The notes under the pieces were generated by a model, which was given only the letters and a program-made list of their open reading frames with translations, searched no databases and was not told where the DNA came from. A stretch of 64,000 nt of DNA from Bacteroidales bacterium (GTDB taxonomy: Bacteria; Bacteroidota; Bacteroidia; Bacteroidales; UBA932): the NCBI GenBank assembly GCA_023667095.1, contig JAMPAT010000017.1:1-64000 (forward strand), in the 5' to 3' direction. This document shows positions 41,083 to 60,140 of this stretch, in pieces. Positions within the stretch are counted from its first letter, which is position 1. The number at the start of each line of letters is the position of its first letter. Position numbers and translations under genes: made by a program.

Positions 41083-41148
41083 CAGACAGAAAGTGCAAAA
41101 CTTTTTAGACAGATAAATATTTGAAAACATAACAGTTTTCTTATTGCC

Positions 41149-41286
41149 GTACTCTAGAAATCGCCAAAATTACTCAGCAGTCGCAGGCAATAAGGAGCCG
41201 CACCCGTATAAGGTGCGGACTTTCCTTATGCGATTGCAGGTGTTTGGCGATACCTTAGAGTGCAGACGGGGAGTCCGCACTTTTTT
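41149..41286 (+). promoter_or_regulatory. Structured leader with terminator/antiterminator architecture
   Basis: Nested stems are visible: P1 41149-41168 with 41243-41263 (imperfect), P2 41177-41184 with 41230-41237, P3 41190-41196 with 41223-41229, P4 41198-41204 with 41212-41218. The right arm of P4 (GGTGCGG) can instead pair with 41272-41280 (AGTCCGCAC), a stem extendable to about 14 bp and followed directly by six T. The two pairings exclude each other, as in a riboswitch or attenuator. It lies between the promoter and the SEDS-PBP start. I do not recognise the aptamer class. Confidence 0.65.
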
Positions 41287-41311
41287 GTTTTACTTGCAAG
41301 GGGTCATCATT

Positions 41312-44300
41312 ATGAAAAAATATTCATTTGTCATCGTCTCACTGATATTGGGGATTCTGTTCCTTAAATTGTCGCATAACTACTCTGACAGGTTTTCCGA
41401 TATTAAGAAGTCCTATGGAGACAATACTTCCATCAATCTTGTAAAAGATGTTGATGTAAAGAAAATAAGCACAGTCTTGTTTGACAATAATTATATGCAG
41501 GACAAGCAGGATGCTGATTTTCTTGCAGAACAATTGGCAGGGAAACTTAAATCTGGACAGGTTCTGTCAGAATTGTCGGATCTTAATAAACGTGCATGGC
41601 AGCTGCCTTGTACTGTGATTGATACTTGTAAAAGTGCGGAATTAAGGAAAAAGTTGTATCAGTCTCAGGTGGCATTGGGACTGGATGAGGAATTTAAAGG
41701 AATTGCTGTCGGAGAGTTGGAATCCTATGCTCGTCTTAATGAAAAACATGACGGAAAAATAGAGGTATATGTTAATGCTGAAGATGATAAGGCAAACATT
41801 AACACCGAGGATGATAAGGCTAACTTTCTGAAGAAGATAACTAAAAAAGATAAGAAATGCTGTGTGGGTACAGTCGTCCGTCTGTCAATGCATGACCTTG
41901 ACAGCCTTTCCGGCAGCCCGGAGCGCAGGACAATCTGCTATCTGAAGACAGACGGGAATGGCAAGGCCATATTTGAAGGACTGGATCCAGCATTGTCATA
42001 TAGCGTATTGCCAATCCGTAAAGGGTATGAATATGGAGTATCCAAAGGAACCTTGTCTGGAAGTCTTTCAAGAAGCAGCAAGAATAACTCCCTTTCATTC
42101 TCCTTTACAGAAATGGAGCATAGGATCAGGCTTTTTGATACAGCCACTTTGAGACAGATCAAGGAAGACAAGGCAATGACAGTACGGTCTCCCGAAAAAT
42201 TCAAAAGCATATTGACAATATCCCTTGCAATGTTCTTTATTGCGTGGTGGGGACTGTATCTGTCCGGTATTTTCAGGCGCAGAAGGCTGGATGCCGGAAT
42301 TATGTCTTCAATCATGCTGCTTACCGGAATCTGCCTGATGACGATGTTTTCCATAAATGATCCTTTGACTGATAGACTGTTGGGAATAGAAATGGCTCAG
42401 GGCATTGTATTCGGGATTATAGCTGTTTCCTTGCTTTGTAATGTTGATTTTATCGGATTCTATCAGAATAGATTGCCAGTAGGGTTTGATATACCTTTGG
42501 AGTGCATGAAATGGATATTCAGGCCTTTCCGGGAAAAAGTTGCGTATTTGACTGAAATCCTGACCAGGAAAACAGCGAATGGATTTTATAAGTTATTTGC
42601 TGTCTTGGTTATACTTGTCTGCACGCCTTTTCTTGTCCTGGATCTTTTCCGTATGACAAGGTTAAATGGATTTGTGGACAGGTTATGCAGCAGATTGCCT
42701 AAAGGGACAGGATATCTATTGATAGCTATATTTCTGACAGTCTCCCTGTTCTTGTTTGGCAATGAAGTCGGAGGCATGAAGGTCAACCTTAACCTGCTCG
42801 GCCTGAAATTCCAGCCAAGTGAAATTGCCAAATATCTTGTCGTGATTTTCATGGCAGCTTTCTTTACAGCCAATGCTGACAGTATTGTGAAGTACTCTGA
42901 AAAAGGAAATGCAGGATTGTTTGGAGCAAAATTGAAGATGCTGGCGGCAATGATTGTTGGCCTTGGGATGATGATGCTTCTTTATCTTGCTCTTGGGGAT
43001 ATGGGGCCTGCGCTTATCCTGGCTTTCACTTTCATAATATTATATTCTATAGTCAAGTCAAAGGTAGATATAGAAGGGCTTGATGACAGCCGTCAGCTGG
43101 TAAGGCTTCTGACATGTGACCTGGCTATGCTGCTTTATGGTGCAATATCATTTATTGCCTGTCTTTATGTCGGGAATCTTGCCGGAAGCATGGGAGCATT
43201 CTGCATAGGATGGTTTGCAGTCTGGATTATTTTCGGGATATGCAGGAAACAGATTTTTGAGTCTGCAATCATGTTCAACCTTATCATTGCTGCATTTCTG
43301 TTTGCAGGAAATATCCTTGGGCATATCCCGCAGCTGGAAAGTACGGCAGAACGACTGGAAAGCAGGAATGAAATGTGCTCAAACACCTGGGGAATACTTC
43401 CTGTAGACGGAAATACGGCGGACGCAGGGGAGAACACACAGGTTGCGGAAGGCTTGTGGGGGCTTGCTTCCGGTGGACTGTCAGGACAGGGACTGGGGAA
43501 CGGGGCTCCATATTATATTCCGGCATATCACACCGACATGATACTTGAGAGCATAGGGGAACAGATGGGATTTATCGGGATATCTATGATTCTACTGGCA
43601 TTGGCTGTGCTTTTGAGAAGGACCATGTTGGCGGGTTACAGGACGTCCCATCCATTCCCTTTTTACCTTTGTACAGGAATTGCCATAGTGACTGCTGTAC
43701 AGTTTATTGTAATATCGTTGGGAAGCCTCGGCATAATACCTTTGACAGGTGTAACTGTGCCGTTCCTGAGCTATGGCAGGGTCAGCATGATTCTTAATTT
43801 GGCGGCCTTTGGAATAATCTTGTCTATATCCAGGGATGATAGAAGGCTTTCCGTGAATGAGAATAAAGTTATCACTGACCTTATAAGGCGCAATATCGGG
43901 CAATATAATTATTCTGTCTCGATATTGAGCTGGATGTACTGCATCTTGGCAGTCCTGATATGTGGCACTTTCTTCTATTGGCAGTTCATTGCCAGGGACA
44001 GGACATTGATAAGGCCTGTCTATGTCAATAATTCGAGCGGTGTGCCTGTAATAGAATACAATCCGCGCATTTCCCAGCTGACAAGGAAGATGTATGCCGG
44101 TGACATATATGACCGTAACGGTGTGCTGCTGGCAACCAGTGACCGTTCCAGGCTTGCAAAGGATAAGAAAACATATTCAGGACAAGGGCTTGAATGTGAT
44201 ACATTGAAGCGTCAGCGCAGATATTATCCTTTCGGGGAACATCTGTACTTTATGCTTGGTGACTACAATTCGATGCTCTTCTTTTCTTCAAGTGACAAAA

Positions 44301-45772
44301 GTCCCCGGGGATATATGGCTGAGGCCAGGCACCTGTCTGAATTACGTGGCTATGACAATATATTGCGTGATTCAGAGGGGAAGCCAGTCCGGGTGGATTT
44401 GTCTTCAAATAGCTATAGACCGGAAAAATATTTCTCTTCAGATTATGAATTTTTCCAGAAAGGAGTACAGCTGAGGGATCATTCTGCGCTTATTCCATAT
44501 CTCAAGGCCGGTGTCAACAGTGACAAGGTAAGGCGTCTGAACGGGAGGAATACGAGACTACTTGAACGGGAGACTGTCAAGCCTCAGGATATCCAGCTTA
44601 CAATAGATGCCTGCCTGCAGACAAAGTTACAGCAAAACATGAAAGCACATATGAGTAAGAAAGATTATTCCGGAATGGAATGGAACAAGGTCAGGGCTTC
44701 TGTCGTTGTACTTGATGCAAGGAATGGAGACCTTCTTGCATCTGCGAATTATCCTTTACCGGATTATGATGTACTGAAGACGTCTCCTGATGTGTATTCC
44801 GATTACCGGAAAGGGGCTGATTGGAAAGCCTATACTGATATGGATCTGGGGCTTGTCTATCCTACAGCACCTGGTTCTACAGCAAAGGTCATGTCTTCAT
44901 TGGCAGCTTTTCGAAAAGATGAGAGGCTCGCTTCCAAGAAGAAATACTATATCTATGAGGAGGAAAAGATATACGGTAATGAACCATCTGGAAGATATCT
45001 GGATATGAAAGATGCGTTAAGGTATTCGTCGAACTGTTACTTTATCAATCTTGTCAATGATATGTCACTCTATGATGAACTTGCCTATATCTATGGCAAT
45101 GCAGGAGTCAATGTCAACGGAGCTGCTCCATATATATTTGAGTATAGTTTGCCATCTGAAGACTGGAACCGGCGGGTGACATCACAGCAAGGGCCTTGTG
45201 TCAGTGCTTATGAAAAATATATAAAAAGCGGTGTAAAGGAAAAAATGAATGACAAAAAACCTGCTGCATGGTCATGGGCCTGGGGACAGAATGGAGTAGA
45301 CGCAACTCCTGCTGCCATGGCACGTATTGTCTCCGTTGCCGCAAATTGCGGTAAGATGCCGAAGACAAGATATCTTCTCCAGGATGAAAAAGATGATGTC
45401 GACTATGTTGACAGGGTGAGTGCGGAGCTGCTTAATGAATATTTAAAATTTACTGCGCAGAATCACGATAAGTTTACATCTGCAAAAGGATTTCATGGAG
45501 ATAGAGTCGGAGGTAAGACCGGTACTTCTGAGAGATACTTTGACAGAAGTGAAAATAATAAAAGAAATGACGGATGGTATATCTGTTTTATAGAGAACGC
45601 CAAAATTTCAAAAGTGATCGGCCAGAAGACAGAACTGGACGATTCTCCTCTTGCAGTTGCTGTCCGTATGGAGAGGCTCCCGGGAAAAAACGGGTCAGGA
45701 CGTGCACGGCAGTTGACAAAGGAAGTTGTCTGGACATCATTGGATACATTGGGCTATATAAATAAATTATGA
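41312..45772 (+). CDS. SEDS glycosyltransferase-class B PBP fusion protein
   Basis: A 1486-residue fusion of the two halves of a peptidoglycan synthase. Residues 1-21 are a TM anchor; 22-290 are extracytoplasmic. From about 295 to 850 lies a FtsW/RodA-like polytopic domain: GGMKVNLNLLGLKFQPSEIA, LALGDMGPALIL (conserved Asp), GGLSGQGLGNGAPYYIPAYH and PLTGVTVPFLSYG. From about 870 follows another TM and a transpeptidase domain with PGSTAK (Ser1189, Lys1192), SSN (1239-1241) and KTG (1402-1404). All three transpeptidase motifs are intact. The SEDS signature usually reads SYGGSS; here it is SYGRVS. The long upstream frame from 41144 is rejected because it crosses the structured leader. Expected role: glycan polymerisation and crosslinking in one polypeptide. 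Confidence 0.93.
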   Translation: MKKYSFVIVSLILGILFLKLSHNYSDRFSDIKKSYGDNTSINLVKDVDVKKISTVLFDNNYMQDKQDADFLAEQLAGKLKSGQVLSELSDLNKRAWQLPCTVIDTCKSAELRKKLYQSQVALGLDEEFKGIAVGELESYARLNEKHDGKIEVYVNAEDDKANINTEDDKANFLKKITKKDKKCCVGTVVRLSMHDLDSLSGSPERRTICYLKTDGNGKAIFEGLDPALSYSVLPIRKGYEYGVSKGTLSGSLSRSSKNNSLSFSFTEMEHRIRLFDTATLRQIKEDKAMTVRSPEKFKSILTISLAMFFIAWWGLYLSGIFRRRRLDAGIMSSIMLLTGICLMTMFSINDPLTDRLLGIEMAQGIVFGIIAVSLLCNVDFIGFYQNRLPVGFDIPLECMKWIFRPFREKVAYLTEILTRKTANGFYKLFAVLVILVCTPFLVLDLFRMTRLNGFVDRLCSRLPKGTGYLLIAIFLTVSLFLFGNEVGGMKVNLNLLGLKFQPSEIAKYLVVIFMAAFFTANADSIVKYSEKGNAGLFGAKLKMLAAMIVGLGMMMLLYLALGDMGPALILAFTFIILYSIVKSKVDIEGLDDSRQLVRLLTCDLAMLLYGAISFIACLYVGNLAGSMGAFCIGWFAVWIIFGICRKQIFESAIMFNLIIAAFLFAGNILGHIPQLESTAERLESRNEMCSNTWGILPVDGNTADAGENTQVAEGLWGLASGGLSGQGLGNGAPYYIPAYHTDMILESIGEQMGFIGISMILLALAVLLRRTMLAGYRTSHPFPFYLCTGIAIVTAVQFIVISLGSLGIIPLTGVTVPFLSYGRVSMILNLAAFGIILSISRDDRRLSVNENKVITDLIRRNIGQYNYSVSILSWMYCILAVLICGTFFYWQFIARDRTLIRPVYVNNSSGVPVIEYNPRISQLTRKMYAGDIYDRNGVLLATSDRSRLAKDKKTYSGQGLECDTLKRQRRYYPFGEHLYFMLGDYNSMLFFSSSDKSPRGYMAEARHLSELRGYDNILRDSEGKPVRVDLSSNSYRPEKYFSSDYEFFQKGVQLRDHSALIPYLKAGVNSDKVRRLNGRNTRLLERETVKPQDIQLTIDACLQTKLQQNMKAHMSKKDYSGMEWNKVRASVVVLDARNGDLLASANYPLPDYDVLKTSPDVYSDYRKGADWKAYTDMDLGLVYPTAPGSTAKVMSSLAAFRKDERLASKKKYYIYEEEKIYGNEPSGRYLDMKDALRYSSNCYFINLVNDMSLYDELAYIYGNAGVNVNGAAPYIFEYSLPSEDWNRRVTSQQGPCVSAYEKYIKSGVKEKMNDKKPAAWSWAWGQNGVDATPAAMARIVSVAANCGKMPKTRYLLQDEKDDVDYVDRVSAELLNEYLKFTAQNHDKFTSAKGFHGDRVGGKTGTSERYFDRSENNKRNDGWYICFIENAKISKVIGQKTELDDSPLAVAVRMERLPGKNGSGRARQLTKEVVWTSLDTLGYINKL

Positions 45773-46455
45773 GAAATCTATGTCTATTGATTGCCGTGAT
45801 TGTATTCCCGGCTGTGGCCATTGCCCAGAACTATGATTCCTACCTTCAGGAGGCAAAGGAGCATCTGGAGCAGGGGAATGTGGAGAGTGCAAAGAAGTCA
45901 TATCAGGTGTACCGGAGACTGACGGATAAGACAGATGCCATGTTTGAGGAATTGCTAAAAGAATATGGGCAGAATACGCTGTGGATGAGGTACTGCCGCA
46001 TTTTTGACTTGAATGACAGTACCTTCATGGCTGTCCAGGCACTTGACATGACTTCGGTTTCCCATTATCAGGATGCAAAGATAAAGGCGGAATCGTCAAG
46101 GCTTGGAGGATTTGATGACTGGAGACTTTCAGACCAGGGAGAAATGACTTGTATAATGTCGAATTTGCCATCAGATGAACAAAACGCTCCTTTTTATTGG
46201 ATTGCATCCTGTTACAGAAGTGCATCAGCAAGCCAGACTGTAATTATAAACGGCCGGATTGAACCGATTTCTGAATCATTCAATGAAGAGATATATAAAG
46301 TGCTGGATAAATGTACAGGAGTAAAAGACGTATATGGCCGTTCTGTCAAAACTAAGAATGGAGTTGTTGTGAGTGATACTGAATTCGGTGATAAGGCATA
46401 TTGTGCATGGTATTTCATTGTAAGGACATTCCCTAAAAATGACAAACAATTTTAA
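45769..46455 (+). CDS. Exported TPR protein with DUF1566-like domain
   Basis: A 228-residue secreted protein overlapping the fusion gene by 4 bases (ATGA). The signal peptide ends at AIAQ. Residues 21-60 form a TPR-like pair (YDSYLQEAKEHLEQGNVESA) closely resembling the start of the protein at 51149. The remainder contains LGGFDDWRLSDQGEMTCIM, which looks like the DWRLPT signature of the DUF1566/Lcl C-type-lectin-like fold. A periplasmic or surface sensor or scaffold role is inferred from position between the cell-wall synthase and the kinase. The specific function is unknown. Confidence 0.7.
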   Translation: MRNLCLLIAVIVFPAVAIAQNYDSYLQEAKEHLEQGNVESAKKSYQVYRRLTDKTDAMFEELLKEYGQNTLWMRYCRIFDLNDSTFMAVQALDMTSVSHYQDAKIKAESSRLGGFDDWRLSDQGEMTCIMSNLPSDEQNAPFYWIASCYRSASASQTVIINGRIEPISESFNEEIYKVLDKCTGVKDVYGRSVKTKNGVVVSDTEFGDKAYCAWYFIVRTFPKNDKQF

Positions 46456-46466
46456 TCAGATTCATT

Positions 46467-48143
46467 ATGGCTTTTCTGGAAGAATATACATTGCTTGACG
46501 AATTGGGGCAGGGTGGATATGCAACTGTCTATAAGGTTCGTCACAATAAGTTGGGGTATATACGCGCGGTCCGTGTCCTTAATGCAATAATTGCACATGG
46601 CGAATCAGACAGGACATATCAGAAGTTCCTTGAGGAATGCCGTCTTCTGCTGCGTCTCGGAAACGGTAACCATCCAAACATTGTACATGTCTACCAGCCT
46701 CTCCTGAAGGCACAGCGTGCAATTGTGGAGATGGACTTTGTTGATGGGAAGGACCTGTACCATTACCTTGAAGACAAGTCGTCATTTGTGGAGATTGGCG
46801 ATGTGATGAAGTTTTTGATGGATATTGGCAGTGCATTGGCATACTGTCATCACGACATCTATAGGTTCTGCATGGATAAGGAAGAAGATGATTTGCAGGA
46901 TGACCCTGATGATGGTACAAAGGTATTGCTTGATGAAAAGAAGCGTGCCGGGCTAATCGCAAAGTACCGTGTCATCCACAATGATATACATTCGGGAAAT
47001 ATTATCCGCCGTGAGGACGGCAGCTATGTCTTGTTGGATTTTGGACTTGCAATAGAAGGGGACAGTGTAGTCAGAAGCAGCAGACGTAAAAATGGAGCAC
47101 CTGAATTCAAGGCTCCTGAGAAATGGGACAATGACAGTATATTGACAACTCAGTCAGATATATACAGTTTCGGTATCGTCCTGTATGAGTTCCTGGCGGG
47201 GCGTGTCCCGTTTATGTTTGACAAGAAGAATTCAAATCCCGTTGAGGCTGAATATCTGCTTGGGAAAGCTCATAAGGAACAGGCTCCTGAACCTGTGTAT
47301 AGCTTGAGGAAGCAGGCCTTTGAACGCTCACATCCAGGAGAGACATACGTGAAGGACTATCCTGATTGGCTCGAGTCCCTTATCATGAAATGCCTTTCAA
47401 AGAATATGGAAGACAGGTTCACGAGCGGAAAGGAATTGTTCTCGTACATTAAGGGGCATATCAATGAGGATACCGCTACAGAAGAACTTGCTGCGCTGAA
47501 AAAGGAAAATGCAGACCTTGTCAGCCAGCTGAAGCAGATAAGCATTATGAACATTGTCGAATCCCGTTCAAAAGATGCATGGGAAAACCTGCTTACAGAC
47601 CTCCAGGGCCAGCTGCGTGAATCCATAGCAGAGAAAGAGGGCCTGTACAATAGGATACAGGTGTTGCAGACCCGTATAGAACAGTCAGAAAAGGAACTTG
47701 CAGCAGCAAGGGCGGACAGGAAACCGTCATTTTACAGTCCGATATGGAAAATCATGTCGGTGCTGATGCTTGTTGCCGCACTGGTGCTCGGATATCTGTA
47801 TGGTTCAAACGTTGGAACAGAAAGGCCTCCTGCCTCTTTTGTATCAGACAGTACAATAGTCAACAGTGATGATGTGCGTGAGAGATATAAGGAACTGATT
47901 TCCCAAAAAGAAAAGAGGGTTATGGAGCAGGAAAAGCAGATACAGTCGCTTAACCGTCAGATTGCAGAGCTGAAGCAGAATAATCAGGCTGGAGTCGACC
48001 AAAGTATCATTGATGAAAAGGACAGGACAATATCTGAACTAAAGTCAGAAGTAGGCAAGCTTCAGTCTTCTGTAGGCAGTCTGCAAAGGCAGATTGCAGC
48101 AAAGGACAAAGAAATATCTGTGTTGAAAGATGTATATAAATAA
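46467..48143 (+). CDS. Transmembrane Ser/Thr protein kinase-like protein
   Basis: A 558-residue protein. The kinase-like domain (about 7-325) has a glycine loop (LGQGGYATVYKV), DFG at 191-193, and APEFKAPEKWD plus SDIYSFGIVLYE. The catalytic loop is HNDIHSGN (Asp173, Asn178), resembling small-molecule and APH-type kinases more than HRDLKPxN. The beta-3 Lys position reads AVRVL, with Arg36 in place of Lys. A cytoplasmic coiled coil (about 335-420), a single TM (about 425-448) and a periplasmic coiled coil follow, with no PASTA repeats. It is likely a membrane receptor kinase or pseudokinase for the FHA proteins encoded next. Gap to the previous gene is 11 bases. Confidence 0.9.
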   Translation: MAFLEEYTLLDELGQGGYATVYKVRHNKLGYIRAVRVLNAIIAHGESDRTYQKFLEECRLLLRLGNGNHPNIVHVYQPLLKAQRAIVEMDFVDGKDLYHYLEDKSSFVEIGDVMKFLMDIGSALAYCHHDIYRFCMDKEEDDLQDDPDDGTKVLLDEKKRAGLIAKYRVIHNDIHSGNIIRREDGSYVLLDFGLAIEGDSVVRSSRRKNGAPEFKAPEKWDNDSILTTQSDIYSFGIVLYEFLAGRVPFMFDKKNSNPVEAEYLLGKAHKEQAPEPVYSLRKQAFERSHPGETYVKDYPDWLESLIMKCLSKNMEDRFTSGKELFSYIKGHINEDTATEELAALKKENADLVSQLKQISIMNIVESRSKDAWENLLTDLQGQLRESIAEKEGLYNRIQVLQTRIEQSEKELAAARADRKPSFYSPIWKIMSVLMLVAALVLGYLYGSNVGTERPPASFVSDSTIVNSDDVRERYKELISQKEKRVMEQEKQIQSLNRQIAELKQNNQAGVDQSIIDEKDRTISELKSEVGKLQSSVGSLQRQIAAKDKEISVLKDVYK

Positions 48144-48148
48144 TAGCC

Positions 48149-49021
48149 ATGGGAAAAAATATATTTGAAAGAATTGCCGGTTGGATAAATGGTCAGGAAG
48201 ATAATGGGCTTGCGGAAAAAACCGGGCAGCCGGTGGCTGCAAAGGCAGACATGGATGAAAGCAGCAAGTCTGTGAAAGGTGAGTCGAATGCAATCGAAAA
48301 AAGGGAAAATCTGATAAAGTCAGTTAAAGATACATTGAATGCAAACTACAGGGGACAGAAATGCAGCTTTGAAGATAAGGTCCTGTCTGTCTGCATTATG
48401 GACAACCTGTTCTATGATTCTCTGGATAAGGATGATTTTGAGAGGCAGTTGCAGACAGTGGTATATGATGAACTTGGGTATGCCTTTGCAAAGGTGGAAA
48501 CCATATCCGGACCGTTGCATGAAGATGAATCATATTCAAAGGTTTCTGACAGTGTATTCCTGCAGGTCAATCCGGTAAAGAAGGCATTAGTCGTCAGGAA
48601 AGCCATTATAATGCCTGTTGAAGGATGTGGCTCAACAGTCAGTGAAAGCTATGTCCTTGATTCGGAGGAGATTTCTGGAAATCCTGGAGCGAGGTACAAT
48701 ATAGGTGCTGGAAAGCATCCTATGATGGCTGACAGCAGTCATCGTAAAAACTACATTGCAATTGATGATGATCCGTTTTCTCCTGATTTTGCCAAGAACA
48801 GGTATGTCAGCCGCTCGCATGCATATATCACATATGGGGAAAATGCTGGCTTTATGCTTCATGCGGAACTGGGAGGAACACGCCTGGCCGGCAAACGGAC
48901 ACATATCTACAGGGATTCAGAGAAGATAGAACTGGACAACACACTGATTTCCGAGCCATTGAGGGATGGAGACTATATTGTCCTGAGCAAATATGTTCAC
49001 CTCCTATTTAAAGAAATGTAG
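48149..49021 (+). CDS. FHA-domain protein 1
   Basis: A 290-residue cytosolic protein. The N-terminal half (about 45-160) contains FERQLQTVVYDELGYAFAK, an alpha/beta region reminiscent in position of the DUF3662 domain of actinobacterial FhaA. The C-terminal FHA domain (about 185-288) has the phosphothreonine-binding Ser and Arg in YVSRSHAYI and a following GGTRL/IY turn. It starts 5 bases after the kinase gene. FHA domains bind phosphothreonine, so it should read out the kinase. The N-terminal similarity is a suggestion only. Confidence 0.8.
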   Translation: MGKNIFERIAGWINGQEDNGLAEKTGQPVAAKADMDESSKSVKGESNAIEKRENLIKSVKDTLNANYRGQKCSFEDKVLSVCIMDNLFYDSLDKDDFERQLQTVVYDELGYAFAKVETISGPLHEDESYSKVSDSVFLQVNPVKKALVVRKAIIMPVEGCGSTVSESYVLDSEEISGNPGARYNIGAGKHPMMADSSHRKNYIAIDDDPFSPDFAKNRYVSRSHAYITYGENAGFMLHAELGGTRLAGKRTHIYRDSEKIELDNTLISEPLRDGDYIVLSKYVHLLFKEM

Positions 49022-49039
49022 TAACAGGAATATATCAAC

Positions 49040-50005
49040 ATGGCAAATTTTATAAAAAAGGCTCTTGAATTGTTCAAGGGCGAAGACGGCAAGGCAAGTG
49101 TAGAAGAAAACAATGTCCTTACAAACAAGATTCTTTTGAAGGAACTTGTGTCACATTTCAGGACAATGCTGGAAAAGGAATCTGTGGGACATAGGATGCT
49201 TTACCCTATGTCGTTCAATATCCTTATGGAGTCTGAGGACTATAATGACAGGATTCAGTCCCTTCCGTTTGTTCTCCCTGAGGTCGTAGCTGCATTTTAT
49301 GGCATAATTGACAGTATGAAGGGTGAATTCCCGAATTATGAACCGCCTGCGAAGTATTGGTTTTTTCAATTTTCTTCATGCAGCCAAGGAAATGCAGTTC
49401 TTGCCAATTCTGCCCCTATTGTTCGTAAAGGGCATATTGCAACAGTTTCTACGCTGATGACATTCGATATCAGGGAAGCCCGCAATACGTTTGCGGAAAG
49501 CAATACAAGGGTTTCTATCAAATTGGATGATTCCAATGTAATGAATGATGTGAATGTAAATCAGGAAGCTATCAAGACTCTGGATATAATTGGAAACAAT
49601 ATTTTTACCTATAATTTTGATAAGAGCCTGAGCTGTGATTCGTCACGTATCAAGGATTCGTCAAATATGGCAGAAGTCACCGGACTTGCAGTGCTGTCTT
49701 ATTCGCGTGGCGGGAAGAATTATCATTTTACTATGAAAGACAATCTGATACATATTTCAGGCAAGAACGAGAAACGTACTGGACGTTCATTCTTCATTCT
49801 TGAAACTGTAGATGTCAAAGATTCTCATGTACAGATTAAATATGTCCCGGAGGAAAAGAAATTCCAGATTGCCGCCTTTGGCCTGGTGCGGTTGAATGGA
49901 CGTAAATTGACAGAGAGCAGCGGTGCTCCTCAATGGCATAGCCTTGCAAATAATTCGAGCATCTTTATAAATGATGAGATCAGTGTCAAATTTGAGATCA
50001 AATGA
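49040..50005 (+). CDS. FHA-like protein 2
   Basis: A 321-residue cytosolic protein. The last 100 residues look like a degenerate FHA domain: SHVQIKYVPEEKKFQIAAFG, then VRLNGRKL (the usual GTxVNG turn), then SIFINDEISVKFE. The N-terminal 180 residues have no domain I recognise but share the layout of FHA protein 1, with an alpha/beta region before the FHA. The usual binding Arg is not clear, so phosphopeptide binding is uncertain. Overlaps the phosphatase start by 4 bases. Confidence 0.65.
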   Translation: MANFIKKALELFKGEDGKASVEENNVLTNKILLKELVSHFRTMLEKESVGHRMLYPMSFNILMESEDYNDRIQSLPFVLPEVVAAFYGIIDSMKGEFPNYEPPAKYWFFQFSSCSQGNAVLANSAPIVRKGHIATVSTLMTFDIREARNTFAESNTRVSIKLDDSNVMNDVNVNQEAIKTLDIIGNNIFTYNFDKSLSCDSSRIKDSSNMAEVTGLAVLSYSRGGKNYHFTMKDNLIHISGKNEKRTGRSFFILETVDVKDSHVQIKYVPEEKKFQIAAFGLVRLNGRKLTESSGAPQWHSLANNSSIFINDEISVKFEIK

Positions 50006-51138
50006 GTATGGAAAGCATAAAGTTCTGTGGCAATACTGACCTTGGCAAGGTCCGCACAAACAATGAGGATGCATACATCGTACAGAATATATGGGATGAG
50101 AATCATGTCCTGGCTGTTGCCATTGACGGTGTCGGGGGATATGAAGGTGGTGAAGTCGCATCCGGTATGGCAAAGAAATATATTGTAGAATATCTTGAGA
50201 ATTATTCAAATGGAGAACGGATTGAACTGTTGAAACAGGCTGTGGTCTATGCCAATAACAATATATTTTCTGCGCGTAGGGAACTTCACCAGTATTCGAG
50301 CATGAGCTGTGTCCTGACAGCAATAATTGTGGATGTCACCGGCAGGTGTGTACATATGGCGCATGTAGGTGATACGCGTCTTTATCAATATTCAGACGAT
50401 GAACTTGTGAAACTGTCACATGACCATTCGCTTGTCGGGTATCGGGAAGAGATCGGTGAATTGACGGAAGATGAGGCGATGCACCATCCGCAGAGGAATG
50501 TCATTGGGCGAGATGTCGGGTCAACATACCTGGATGGCAATGTGGGTGAATATGTTGAGACAGCAACATTTCCGCTTCTGCCAAAATCTGACCTGCTCCT
50601 TTGTTCTGACGGATTGTGCGATATGCTTAAATCTGTGGAGATAAAGTCTGTGCTTGAGACGAAATGTACGGTTGAGGAAAAGGTTGGCCAGTTGATTGCC
50701 GCTGCAAATGAAGCAGGCGGAAAGGATAATGTCACTGTTGTTCTGGTCGAAGTAGATATGGATTTGGAGGCTGATGAACCTCTTGTTGAAGACGGCAATG
50801 GGCATGAAGAGGAGAATATGCCTGATAATATCTCTGAAGATATGGCAGTTGACAAGGGTACATCCTTGAATTGGAAGATTAGTAAAAAATATTGGCGTCC
50901 TTGGATATTGGCTGCTGTCGTCGCATTTGCCATGTTCGTTGTGGGATTCATGTCAGGAATGTATGCTGAACGTAATGGAGTGCTCCACAAAGCATCTGAC
51001 AATGTTCCGGAGTCCATGGACTGCTGTCGTGATTCTGTAATTCTCAGATTGCAGAAAGATACAATGGTGCTGCACCGTCAGATTGCAGAGAGGGATTCGG
51101 TAATCAATGTTTTGAAAGTGGCTTTGGATAATAACTAA
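50002..51138 (+). CDS. Transmembrane PP2C-family Ser/Thr phosphatase
   Basis: A 378-residue PP2C (PPM) phosphatase with a C-terminal TM. Metal-site and core motifs are all there: RTNNEDAY, AIDGVGGYEGG, HVGDTRLY, LLCSDGLCDML and GGKDNVTVVLVEV. After the domain (about 1-252) an acidic linker leads to a TM at about 298-318 and a short periplasmic tail with coiled-coil-like heptads. It is the expected counter-enzyme of the kinase. A second copy without TM is at 59379. It overlaps the FHA-like gene by 4 bases, suggesting translational coupling. Confidence 0.93.
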   Translation: MSMESIKFCGNTDLGKVRTNNEDAYIVQNIWDENHVLAVAIDGVGGYEGGEVASGMAKKYIVEYLENYSNGERIELLKQAVVYANNNIFSARRELHQYSSMSCVLTAIIVDVTGRCVHMAHVGDTRLYQYSDDELVKLSHDHSLVGYREEIGELTEDEAMHHPQRNVIGRDVGSTYLDGNVGEYVETATFPLLPKSDLLLCSDGLCDMLKSVEIKSVLETKCTVEEKVGQLIAAANEAGGKDNVTVVLVEVDMDLEADEPLVEDGNGHEEENMPDNISEDMAVDKGTSLNWKISKKYWRPWILAAVVAFAMFVVGFMSGMYAERNGVLHKASDNVPESMDCCRDSVILRLQKDTMVLHRQIAERDSVINVLKVALDNN

Positions 51139-52870: not shown

Positions 52871-53065
52871 ATGATTAGATTGAGTCAGTTGGAGTCAGTT
52901 AGGGATGCGATTCTGATGAGTATCCAGTCTGATAAGATTGGAGATGAGATGATGAACCTTCCATATTACCGTATGGATCCTTGTCCAACATGTGAAGGTA
53001 CTTGTTCAGGTACATGTGATGATTCATGTTCTGGACAGTGCTCAGGATGTGGCAATAATGGGTGA
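52871..53065 (+). CDS. Cysteine-rich peptide, candidate RiPP precursor
   Basis: A 64-residue peptide. The N-terminal 37 residues look like a leader (MIRLSQLESVRDAIL, then a Met/Asp-rich stretch to PYYRMDP). The C-terminal 27 residues carry seven Cys at 38, 41, 45, 49, 53, 57 and 60, spaced x2-x3-x3-x3-x3-x2, with Gly/Ser/Thr between and an end CGNNG. A SPASM radical-SAM gene begins 75 bases downstream. The regular spacing suggests Cys-to-alpha-carbon thioether cross-links. ATG 52871 is chosen over an upstream GTG at 52844. No toxin or metal-binding homologue is recognised. Confidence 0.75.
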   Translation: MIRLSQLESVRDAILMSIQSDKIGDEMMNLPYYRMDPCPTCEGTCSGTCDDSCSGQCSGCGNNG

Positions 53066-53088
53066 TATTGTCTAAATGCTATGTGATG

Positions 53089-53121
53089 TGGTGGAGGATA
53101 AGTATATACCTTCCTCCACCA
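53089..53121 (+). terminator. Hairpin between the precursor and the radical-SAM gene
   Basis: A perfect 10-bp stem (53089-53098 with 53112-53121) with a 13-base loop follows the peptide stop by 23 bases. A T-tract is only weak. It could partly terminate transcription and so raise precursor over enzyme. Confidence 0.6.
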
Positions 53122-53140
53122 TATTTGATAAAAATTAGGT

Positions 53141-54268
53141 ATGATGAAGTACTCCAGTAGATATATTTGCATTACAACAAATGTAATGTGTAATTTGAAT
53201 TGTGTATATTGTTATGAAGATAAGACAAGTAAGAAAACATTTGATCTAAATGCTTCTAAAGCTAAATTAGCTGAATATTTGTCAGAGAAAACTGAAACTG
53301 GGACATTGATTGATTTACATGGAGGTGAACCGTTGATTGTCTTTTCTAAGATTAAGGAATTGTGCGAATGGTTGTGGACGCAAGATTTTCCAGAAGAGTT
53401 TAAAGTCTTTTGTACATCAAATGGAACATTGGTACATGGTAAAGTTCAGGAATGGCTTTGGGAACATAAGGATAAATTTACTTTAGGTCTAAGTTTAGAT
53501 GGACATCGTCAGATGCATAATGCCAATAGATCAAATTCTTTTGACTTGATTGATCTGGACTTCTTTTTAAGGACTTGGCCTTATCAAGGAGTGAAAATGA
53601 CAATAAGTCCACATACAATAAATACTTTGGCTGAAGGTGTTATATTTCTTCATGAAAGAGGTTTTGTAGATATCCGTGTCAATCTTGCTGAAATGGTAGA
53701 TTGGAATAAAGAGAGTTATTTGGAGATTTATCGTCGTGAACTTGGTAAGCTAGGAGAATATTATCTTGAGCATCCTGGTTTAAGTCCATGCTCATTATTT
53801 AAAGTTCCTTTCTTTAGGATAGTGAATGATATGAAGAATGAAAAATGGTGTGGGGCAGGATCTATGCATGCACGTGATATTAGTGGTGATAAAGAATATC
53901 CATGTCATTTGTTCTTTGAATCAGTGTGTGGAAAGGAGAAGTCTGAAAAAAGTTTTGAAATAGATTTTAATAATCCAGATAATCTTGTCTCAGAAGAATG
54001 TAAAGATTGCGCATTCCTACCTATTTGTCCGACTTGTTATGGCGCAAATTATATATCAAGAGGAAATATTGCTTATCGTGATATGAGTATTTGCCGGTTG
54101 CATAAGGTGAGGTTTGTGGAAGTTTGCAAATATGAGTATTCCAGAATTGTTTCCAATAAAACAGAATTGTCAGATGTGAATAATGACGAAAAGTACCGGA
54201 GAGTCTATACTTTGGATGCAATCAAAAAATTATTGCCGTCATTAAGGGAACTTGATTCATCAATATAG
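53141..54268 (+). CDS. SPASM-domain radical SAM peptide maturase
   Basis: A 375-residue radical-SAM enzyme. The 4Fe-4S cluster motif is CNLNCVYC (Cys17, 21, 24), and HGGEP is the SAM-binding segment. The C-terminal SPASM region carries paired Cys clusters (CGAGS, YPCHLF, CKDCAFLPICPTCYG and later CRLH), fitting two auxiliary clusters. Such enzymes in this context (anSME and sactipeptide or ranthipeptide maturases) act on a peptide substrate. The neighbouring Cys-rich peptide is the obvious candidate. GC content here is clearly lower than in the housekeeping genes, suggesting transfer. Confidence 0.93.
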   Translation: MMKYSSRYICITTNVMCNLNCVYCYEDKTSKKTFDLNASKAKLAEYLSEKTETGTLIDLHGGEPLIVFSKIKELCEWLWTQDFPEEFKVFCTSNGTLVHGKVQEWLWEHKDKFTLGLSLDGHRQMHNANRSNSFDLIDLDFFLRTWPYQGVKMTISPHTINTLAEGVIFLHERGFVDIRVNLAEMVDWNKESYLEIYRRELGKLGEYYLEHPGLSPCSLFKVPFFRIVNDMKNEKWCGAGSMHARDISGDKEYPCHLFFESVCGKEKSEKSFEIDFNNPDNLVSEECKDCAFLPICPTCYGANYISRGNIAYRDMSICRLHKVRFVEVCKYEYSRIVSNKTELSDVNNDEKYRRVYTLDAIKKLLPSLRELDSSI

Positions 54269-54270
54269 AT

Positions 54271-54831
54271 ATGGTTATAAAGATAAAAAAGAGCATAGGG
54301 GATAATTATATAGATACTTATCAAAATTTTTTTGATAATAAGGAGTTCCGATATTTGTTTTGGGGACACAAGCCTATCAATATAAGCGAGTGGTTGGAGT
54401 CAAATAAAGATGTGTATGAAAGATATTATGTATATGTAGTTAAAAAGTCTCATTTGGAGCAGGAAAGTTATGTGGGATTCTTTCATATTAGACCTATCCC
54501 AGAAAATGTAAAACTTATGGTGGCTCCAGATGCACATGTAAGTATTAGTGGTGGCCTTAATCCTCAATTATTCAATATTGGTATAGGTATATATTCTTGC
54601 GTGGCAATGATAGATTATTATTTTAAAAAGAATCCAGATAAGATAATATATGCCAGCACATTTTCCTATAATATGCGCTCTTTAAAGATGTTAATGGGAA
54701 TAGGGTTTATTAAGCTAGATTGTACGCTATATGATAAGAATCATGTGATTCTTACTAAAACAGATTTTTATAATAGCAGTATTACAAAATATACTATAAA
54801 TAGAGTAAATGTATTTGTGATAAGTGAGTAA
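54271..54831 (+). CDS. GNAT-family N-acetyltransferase
   Basis: A 186-residue protein starting 2 bases after the radical-SAM gene. It shows the GNAT order: a central strand (YVGFFHIRPI), a following helix (GIYSCVAMIDYYFKKN), and the closing FSYNMRSLKMLMGIGFIKLD, where NMRSLKxxxGIGF is the typical RimJ/RimL-like motif. The acyl-CoA loop is less clear. It is AT-rich like its neighbour. Likely a tailoring or self-immunity enzyme of the peptide cassette; the target is unknown. Confidence 0.78.
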   Translation: MVIKIKKSIGDNYIDTYQNFFDNKEFRYLFWGHKPINISEWLESNKDVYERYYVYVVKKSHLEQESYVGFFHIRPIPENVKLMVAPDAHVSISGGLNPQLFNIGIGIYSCVAMIDYYFKKNPDKIIYASTFSYNMRSLKMLMGIGFIKLDCTLYDKNHVILTKTDFYNSSITKYTINRVNVFVISE

Positions 54832-59378: not shown

Positions 59379-60140
59379 ATGGAATGCATGAAGTTCGGTG
59401 GAAAAACAGACGTAGGCAAGGTCCGCACAAATAATGAGGATGCCTTCATCGCACAGAATATATGGGATGAGAATCACATCCTGGCTGTTGCCATTGACGG
59501 TGTCGGGGGATATGAAGGTGGTGAAGTCGCATCTGGGATGGCAAAGAAATATATTGTCGAATATCTCGGGAACTATTCAGATGGAGAACGGCTTGAACTG
59601 TTGAAGCAAGCTGTTATCTATGCCAATAACAATATCTTTTCAGCCAGAAGGAATCTTCCGCAATATTCTGGTATGTGCTGTGTGCTTACGGCAATCCTTG
59701 TTGATCTCACCGGCCGGTGTGTGCATATGGCTCATGTCGGTGACACACGTCTTTACCAATATGCTGACGGTGAACTTGTGAAACTGTCACATGGCCATTC
59801 GCTTGTCGGCTATAGGGAGGAAATAGGTGAATTGACAGAAGATGAGGCTATGCATCATACGCATAGAAATGTCATAGAACGAAGTATCGGCTCCTCATAT
59901 CTTGATTGGGAACATTGTGACTATGTAGAAATAGCGACCTTTCCACTTAAACCACAATCCTTTCTTATGTTGTGCTCTGACGGCTTGTCTGATATGCTTA
60001 AGTCGTGTCAAATCAAGTCTGTGCTTGAGCAGAAATGTACAGTTGAGGAAACGGTTGAACGGTTGATTGCCGCAGCCAATGATGCAGGAGGAAAGGATAA
60101 TGTAACTGTCGTTTTGGTTGAGCTCAGTAGTGCCTGTTAG
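59379..60140 (+). CDS. Soluble PP2C-family Ser/Thr phosphatase, paralogue of the 50002 gene
   Basis: A 253-residue PP2C. All metal motifs are present: RTNNEDAF, AIDGVGGYEGG, HVGDTRLY, LMLCSDGLSDML and GGKDNVTVVLVEL. It is very similar to the domain at 50002 and ends where that protein's acidic linker and TM begin. The DNA in the first third is nearly identical to the first gene (for instance around 59490-59530 against 50112-50152). It is the last gene of the plus-strand cluster. It should dephosphorylate soluble partners, while the other acts at the membrane. Confidence 0.92.
   Translation: MECMKFGGKTDVGKVRTNNEDAFIAQNIWDENHILAVAIDGVGGYEGGEVASGMAKKYIVEYLGNYSDGERLELLKQAVIYANNNIFSARRNLPQYSGMCCVLTAILVDLTGRCVHMAHVGDTRLYQYADGELVKLSHGHSLVGYREEIGELTEDEAMHHTHRNVIERSIGSSYLDWEHCDYVEIATFPLKPQSFLMLCSDGLSDMLKSCQIKSVLEQKCTVEETVERLIAAANDAGGKDNVTVVLVELSSAC

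What the first reader, a model, noticed from the sequence alone, without database searches (positions are those of the whole stretch)
52871..54831. Cysteine-rich peptide with SPASM radical-SAM enzyme and GNAT: a possible new RiPP
A 64-residue peptide ends in seven cysteines with the near-symmetric spacing x2-x3-x3-x3-x3-x2 and is followed by a SPASM radical-SAM gene and a GNAT gene. Regular Cys spacing plus a SPASM enzyme suggests thioether cross-links (sactipeptide or ranthipeptide-type). No transporter, no usual leader-peptidase and no known precursor family are seen. Its location inside a kinase/cell-wall operon is unexpected. An M50-like protease gene directly upstream might process it.
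Basis: partly seen in the sequence, partly recalled or inferred. Interest (0 to 1): 0.85.

Follow-up and report, generated by a model that had tools for sequence, protein, structure and literature searches.

The report
Cysteine-rich radical-SAM RiPP cassette
A small bacterial gene cassette makes a short cysteine-rich peptide and, very probably, the iron-sulfur enzyme that chemically staples it; the same peptide-enzyme pairing recurs in many relatives, so it is a real but chemically uncharacterised peptide-modification system of a broadly known kind.

Summary
A 64-aa ORF (52871-53065) ends in seven Cys spaced x2-x3-x3-x3-x3-x2. A 375-aa radical SAM/SPASM enzyme (53141-54268) and a GNAT (54271-54831) follow. 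The RiPP reading is well supported: all three nearest maturase orthologues (57-60% identity) have their own Cys-X-Gly-X precursor, and 19 of 20 related loci read have a Cys-rich short ORF or tail within about 1.7 kb. In about 413 kb, ORFs with four or more Cys on a C-x3-C lattice occur only beside such enzymes. A stable hairpin of unrelated sequence separates precursor and maturase in eight of eight loci. GNAT is in six loci, absent from two close sisters: accessory. The M50 gene is not part of the cassette; M42/M18 aminopeptidases recur in other loci. The maturase is nearest to the CXXX-repeat (TIGR04115) and PapB ranthipeptide families but far below both cut-offs; its closest solved fold is CteB. 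Thioether cross-linking is the best guess, not shown. The cassette is AT-rich and rare in the genus, so probably acquired; two unlike cassettes of this clan sit beside one PP2C-phosphatase island, and PP2C genes flank this one. Verdict: new subfamily of a known kind.

The parts
52871..53065 (+). precursor peptide, 64 aa: leader MIRLSQLESVRDAILMSIQSDKIGDEMMNLPYYRMDP, then Cys-rich core
   Evidence: relatives; similar leader style MFxLxxLxxxxxEL in L012, L013, L014
52982..53050 (+). core: C-PT-C-EGT-C-SGT-C-DDS-C-SGQ-C-SG-C (Cys-X-Gly-X repeats)
   Evidence: positions; Gly at Cys+2 in 43 of 65 across family, 0 of 20,000 shuffles
53085..53125 (+). 14-bp-stem hairpin in the gap between precursor stop and maturase start (arms 53085-53098 and 53112-53125); inferred attenuator or mRNA-processing/stability element
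   Evidence: MFE -24.7, z -3.5, 0 of 200 shuffles; z -4.5; same place in seven relatives
53141..54268 (+). radical SAM/SPASM peptide maturase, 375 aa, no N-terminal RRE domain
54271..54831 (+). GNAT-family acyltransferase, 186 aa, accessory tailoring or N-terminal capping enzyme (role inferred)
   Evidence: co-occurs in L012-L016

Best explanation
52.87-54.83 kb is a compact, probably horizontally acquired RiPP cassette. The 64-aa peptide is made in excess of the enzymes (a hairpin after its stop codon would damp transcription or stabilise the upstream mRNA). Its 37-residue leader is recognised directly by the RRE-less radical SAM/SPASM enzyme. The enzyme abstracts H atoms in the Cys-X-Gly-X core and joins several Cys sulfurs to nearby carbons (thioethers; -2 Da each), giving a rigid multi-ring peptide. 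A host peptidase (in other loci a linked M42 or M18 aminopeptidase) removes the leader, and the GNAT acylates the freed N-terminus or the core. Shown by sequence: precursor-maturase pairing, hairpin, GNAT co-occurrence, lack of an N-terminal RRE, relation to CteB/PapB/CXXX enzymes. Inferred: cross-link chemistry, excess expression, leader removal, GNAT substrate, and biological role (secreted antimicrobial or signal, or an effector of the neighbouring Ser/Thr-phosphorylation system).
For: Orthologues at 57-60% identity in three other genera of the family each lie beside their own C-x3-C peptide and a GNAT. More distant relatives (30-44%) also have Cys-rich neighbours; 19 of 20 loci in all. ORFs with >=4 Cys on the C-x3-C lattice occur only beside these enzymes in 412,926 bases and 3,999 ORFs. 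Gly at Cys+2: 43 of 65, 0 of 20,000 shuffles. Hairpin between precursor and maturase in eight of eight loci, z -3.1 to -6.7, sequences unrelated; five other intergenic gaps of the window give z between -2.0 and 1.4. Profile best hit among solved structures is CteB 5wgg, E 6.6e-30, aligned from CteB residue 93 on; the predicted model (pLDDT 80, pTM 0.82) matches CteB first, and also ChlB, a 375-aa maturase solved with its leader bound. PapB makes Cys-Asp/Glu thioethers (PMC9413430).
Against: No chemistry can be read from sequence: the core has no CX3D array (only one CX3E, C38-E42, not conserved), so the acceptor residues are unknown; epimerisation or C-C bonds are not excluded. No transporter, immunity gene or dedicated peptidase is encoded in the cassette, and the own genome has no M42 gene. 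GNAT is missing from the sister loci L058 and L064. One relative (L059, 44% identity) has no recognisable precursor.
Confidence: 0.68

Rival explanations
1. A RiPP, but not a multi-thioether one: the enzyme makes another modification (epimerisation, C-C or other bond, one thioether only) and the remaining Cys form disulfides or bind metal.
For: The SPASM superfamily includes epimerases, cyclophane and streptide makers; many of these families score above noise. Regular Cys-X-Gly-X spacing would also suit metal binding.
Against: Nearest curated families and nearest solved fold are thioether makers or CXXX-target enzymes; the Cys lattice is the only part of the precursor conserved across the family.
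Confidence: 0.22
2. The peptide is a self-standing metallothionein-like protein and the radical SAM gene beside it is unrelated.
For: High Cys density with Gly/Ser/Asp spacers.
Against: In the DNA read, such lattices were found only beside these maturases, in both gene orders and with different leaders; hairpin and order conserved.
Confidence: 0.03
3. The modified peptide is an effector or signal of the Ser/Thr kinase-PP2C operon in which it sits, not a bystander insertion (compatible with the best explanation).
For: PP2C plus phosphoesterase genes lie near three cassettes of two different maturase clades; in G063 and G753 the only PP2C match of the genome is beside the cassette. L014, L018 and L065 sit by E1/JAB-AAA, TerB/AAA-Hsp70 and DO-GTPase genes. 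Radical SAM/SPASM peptide-processing modules within conflict systems that include kinase/PP2C types are described (PMC7159879).
Against: Lower GC (0.30-0.34 against 0.38-0.45) and GC3 of the two enzyme genes and absence from nearly all same-genus genomes look like a recent insertion; L013, L015, L016, L026 show no such neighbours in the DNA held.
Confidence: 0.25
4. The upstream M50-like protein is the dedicated leader peptidase.
For: Directly upstream, 56 bp gap, same strand; HExxH-type motif (HEFTH) and Peptidase_M50B 31.4 bits.
Against: Relatives in eight same-genus genomes stand without any cassette, several beside a sigma-factor-like gene; no M50 gene seen in L012-L016, L058, L064; GC of the M50 gene matches the host operon, not the cassette.
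Confidence: 0.06

Closest known systems
CXXX-repeat radical SAM system (NCBIfam TIGR04115 maturase, TIGR04114/TIGR04117 targets, TIGR04119)
   Same: Radical SAM/SPASM enzyme beside a peptide with Cys every fourth residue; best curated match (114 bits). A true member was found in a phage tail cluster beside the same Cys-X-Gly-X type of repeat.
   Different: Score a third of the cut-off (350); no TIGR04119 domain, which the A. prevotii plasmid member carries; separate branch in the tree, where true TIGR04115 relatives cluster 100/100 apart.
PapB / freyrasin ranthipeptides (NF047865)
   Same: SPASM enzyme, many Cys in regular spacing in the core; 109-149 bits for the close family.
   Different: Cut-off 340 not reached; PapA uses CX3D motifs (PMC9413430), here the residue four after Cys is usually another Cys (41 of 71).
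SCIFF / thermocellin maturase CteB (5wgg, 5why)
   Same: Closest solved structure by profile (E 6.6e-30) and by fold; SPASM Cys aligned.
   Different: CteB has about 90 extra N-terminal residues (the RRE region, from general knowledge) that this enzyme lacks; precursor does not match the SCIFF model.
FxSxx-type peptide-processing modules of ternary conflict systems (Kaur et al. 2020, PMC7159879)
   Same: Small peptide plus radical SAM/SPASM gene within a signalling locus.
   Different: No FxSxx motif; no vWA or AP-ATPase partner among the neighbours scanned; FxsB not among the best 25 families of this maturase.

Membership tests
TIGR04115 CXXX-repeat maturase | NCBIfam score above 350 bits | tested here: not met
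   113.7 bits; close relatives 109-136 bits; members found here score 386-487
TIGR04114 CXXX target repeat | score above 20 bits | tested here: not met
   14.5 bits; relatives 11-16
PapB/freyrasin ranthipeptide | NF047865 above 340 bits | tested here: not met
   108.6 bits
PapB/freyrasin ranthipeptide | array of CX3D(E) motifs in the core | tested here: not met
   only C38-X3-E42; position Cys+4 is Cys in most cases
ranthipeptide or sactipeptide class | Cys S to non-alpha or alpha carbon thioether bonds | not testable with these tools
   needs mass spectrometry / NMR
SCIFF | match to SCIFF precursor and TIGR03974 maturase models | tested here: not met
   peptide: no SCIFF hit; enzyme 47 bits, cut-off 425
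radical SAM/SPASM RiPP maturases | CX3CX2C plus seven-Cys SPASM region | tested here: met
   C17-C21-C24 and C237, C255, C287, C290, C296, C299, C318 invariant in six sequences; aligned to CteB
RiPP (precursor + maturase) | conserved adjacency of a short precursor with leader and core to the maturase | tested here: met
   19 of 20 loci
GNAT acetyltransferase | GNAT domain above gathering score; R/QxxGxG/A-type CoA loop | tested here: inconclusive
   22.7 bits, gathering 25.4; family profile matches solved GNATs; FNxGxGxY loop largely conserved
ternary-system peptide-processing module | zincin peptidase, vWA and effector partners | tested here: inconclusive
   kinase, sub-threshold FHA and PP2C present; no vWA in neighbours scanned

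The most novel reading that the evidence does not exclude
A new class of Cys-X-Gly-X RiPPs whose RRE-less maturase stitches a repeat lattice (several consecutive Cys thioethers to non-acidic residues), N-acylated by a partner GNAT, deployed as an exchangeable effector within Ser/Thr kinase-PP2C signalling islands; the same repeat chemistry is used by phages on tail-cluster proteins.
Probability: 0.15. Interest if true: 0.85.

Novelty: new variant of a known kind. Interest (0 to 1): 0.55.

Why it matters
It gives an unnamed radical SAM subfamily with clear, paired precursors, small enough (three genes, 2 kb) to test at once, in a phylum (Bacteroidota) where few radical SAM RiPPs are characterised. 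The regular Cys-X-Gly-X lattice lacks the acidic acceptors used by PapB, so the cross-link chemistry cannot be predicted and may be new. The finding of true CXXX maturases with the same kind of repeat in phage tail gene clusters makes a direct question testable: do phages modify structural proteins with radical SAM enzymes?

Tried and rejected
M50 as cassette protease: rejected. Empty-site comparison in the genus: the downstream gene P0005 has no homologue in 150 same-genus genomes, so the insertion could not be shown directly. The genome-contig scan found only 23%-identity relatives. GNAT structure from a single sequence was too poor to use (pLDDT 47). Literature searches for CXXX repeat, GNAT plus Cys-rich RiPPs and M42 in RiPPs gave no description of this cassette; Bacteroidales RiPP mining (PMC10352776) mentions neither GNAT nor CXXX. 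The Haft and Basu 2011 paper is not held. No Rfam family nor canonical terminator at the hairpin.

Full report
Observation. The ORF table and sequence confirm a 64-aa ORF at 52871-53065 whose last third is CPTCEGTCSGTCDDSCSGQCSGC (Cys 38, 41, 45, 49, 53, 57, 60). A radical SAM gene (53141-54268) and a GNAT gene (54271-54831) follow on the same strand. All lie in an operon-like run with an FtsW/RodA-transpeptidase fusion, a protein kinase, a protein with a sub-threshold FHA match, and PP2C.

Not chance. A run of five Cys at spacing four arises in 385 of 200,000 shuffles of the core. More telling, among 3,999 six-frame ORFs in 412,926 bases of window and relatives, ORFs with four or more Cys on the C-x3-C lattice were found only next to relatives of this maturase.

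Family. In 300 family genomes seven had a hit, and in 350 genus genomes four, own genome included; so the cassette is rare. Orthologues in L012, L013 and L014 (57-60%) have their own precursors (leader MF[DN]LxxLxxxxEL; two in L012) and GNATs. L015 and L016 (38-39%) again have precursor, maturase and GNAT. L058 and L064 have doubled C[SY]DGSCSG[DN]CVGGC cores and no GNAT. L026, L028, L029 and L065 have other Cys-rich neighbours. L017, L027, L060 and L066 have short precursors with three to four Cys; L017 also has YcaO. A Phocaeicola plasmid (L146) has an M18 aminopeptidase and a 49-aa Cys peptide. L030 has a 109-aa ORF with a CTCGCSC stretch. L018, the paralogue in the own genome, has a 249-aa HExxH protein with a Cys tail. 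L059 alone shows none. That is 19 of 20 loci. In the tree the window enzyme groups 100/100 with L012, L013, L014 and L059.

Core and hairpin. Gly lies two after Cys in 43 of 65 cases, never reached in 20,000 shuffles that keep Cys fixed. Between precursor stop and maturase start a strong hairpin lies in all eight loci where the precursor is directly upstream (window, L012b, L013-L016, L058, L064; z -3.1 to -6.7), with unrelated sequences. Similar hairpins follow precursors in L060, L027, L066 and L146 (z -3.0 to -4.0), weaker in L017 (z -2.5), none after L012a, L028, L026. Control gaps of the window do not show it. In the window the arms are 53085-53098 and 53112-53125. An attenuator or stabiliser favouring precursor mRNA is inferred; no poly-T terminator is present.

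Enzyme. NCBIfam places it nearest to TIGR04115 and PapB with 114 and 109 bits against cut-offs of 350 and 340; relatives behave alike. The profile finds CteB best among solved structures, starting at CteB residue 93. A model made with 29 viral relatives (pLDDT 80, pTM 0.82) matches CteB first, then anSME and ChlB, the latter solved with its leader. The enzyme begins 16 residues before its first cluster Cys, so there is no N-terminal RRE; leader binding must be direct or by another protein (inference).

Accessories. GNAT: weak Pfam score but consistent family; present in six loci, absent in two close ones. N-terminal capping after leader removal is my guess. Peptidase: M42 genes adjoin or lie near in L012, L014 and L060, M18 in L146; aminopeptidase trimming is a known route of leader removal (PMC10885120). 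The own genome has no M42. The M50-like gene is not linked to such cassettes elsewhere.

Setting. GC falls to 0.34 and 0.30 in the two enzyme genes and GC3 to 0.26-0.27, flanks 0.38-0.45: probably acquired. Yet related cassettes recur by signalling genes. L012 and L058 carry the same island (phosphoesterase, PP2C, KptA, DSP phosphatase; 87-92% alike) beside different maturases (39% alike), and in those genomes this PP2C is the only match found. The window has two PP2C genes, 82% identical, on either side of the cassette. L014, L018 and L065 lie by E1/JAB-AAA, TerB/AAA-Hsp70 and DO-GTPase genes. Radical SAM/SPASM peptide modules in such conflict systems are described (PMC7159879). I hold a functional tie at about 0.25.

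Chemistry. CteB and PapB make Cys thioethers (PMC11002830); PapB joins Cys to Asp or Glu in CX3D/E (PMC9413430). Here the residue four after Cys is mostly Cys, so acceptors must differ. Thioethers remain the most likely product, at about two in three; regiochemistry cannot be told.

Verdict. Real RiPP cassette, precursor-maturase pairing about 0.93 likely; a new subfamily of a known kind.

Noticed in passing
L067 4863-6203 and 6528-6920 (also L123; L114 4776-4970; L075 6660-7196; L084 7053-7259; L069 938-1060): Viral contigs carry a true TIGR04115 maturase (L067 486 bits) among baseplate and tail genes, followed by a 130-aa protein with about 20 Cys-X-Gly-X-like repeats; similar Cys-repeat ORFs lie by relatives on other viral contigs. 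Suggests radical SAM modification of phage tail-cluster proteins.
   Followed up: partly
L018 7256-10285 (own genome G000:C22): A 37%-identity maturase paralogue lies between two related 249- and 273-aa proteins with an HExxH-like motif (HECAH), the first ending in CATSHGCSGATDCDAAYGAYHR, within a TerB/AAA and Hsp70 island.
   Followed up: partly
window 50002-51138 and 59379-60140: Two PP2C phosphatase genes 82% identical in DNA over 745 bp, same strand, bracket the cassette about 9 kb apart.
   Followed up: partly
window 41144-51138: FtsW/RodA-transpeptidase fusion (1542 aa) followed by a TPR-like protein, Ser/Thr kinase, sub-threshold FHA protein and PP2C, reminiscent of the actinobacterial pknB-pstP-rodA-pbpA-fha operon (from general knowledge).
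   Followed up: partly
L012 481-18018 and L058 4784-8609: Same phosphoesterase-PP2C-KptA-DSP island (87-92% protein identity) in two genera, beside radical SAM cassettes of two different clades; L012 also holds further radical SAM genes, a second precursor, a second GNAT and a BadF-type ATPase.
   Followed up: partly
L017 5736-8771: Maturase relative with a YcaO gene and a 44-aa precursor (..EGCSFCGLGCEGIVG): possible hybrid YcaO/radical SAM RiPP; similar short precursors at L027, L066, L060.
   Followed up: no
L017 8847-9209, L027 8424-8744, L146 1377-1706: A small hydrophobic protein with a C-terminal four-Cys zinc-ribbon-like tail recurs upstream of the maturase.
   Followed up: no
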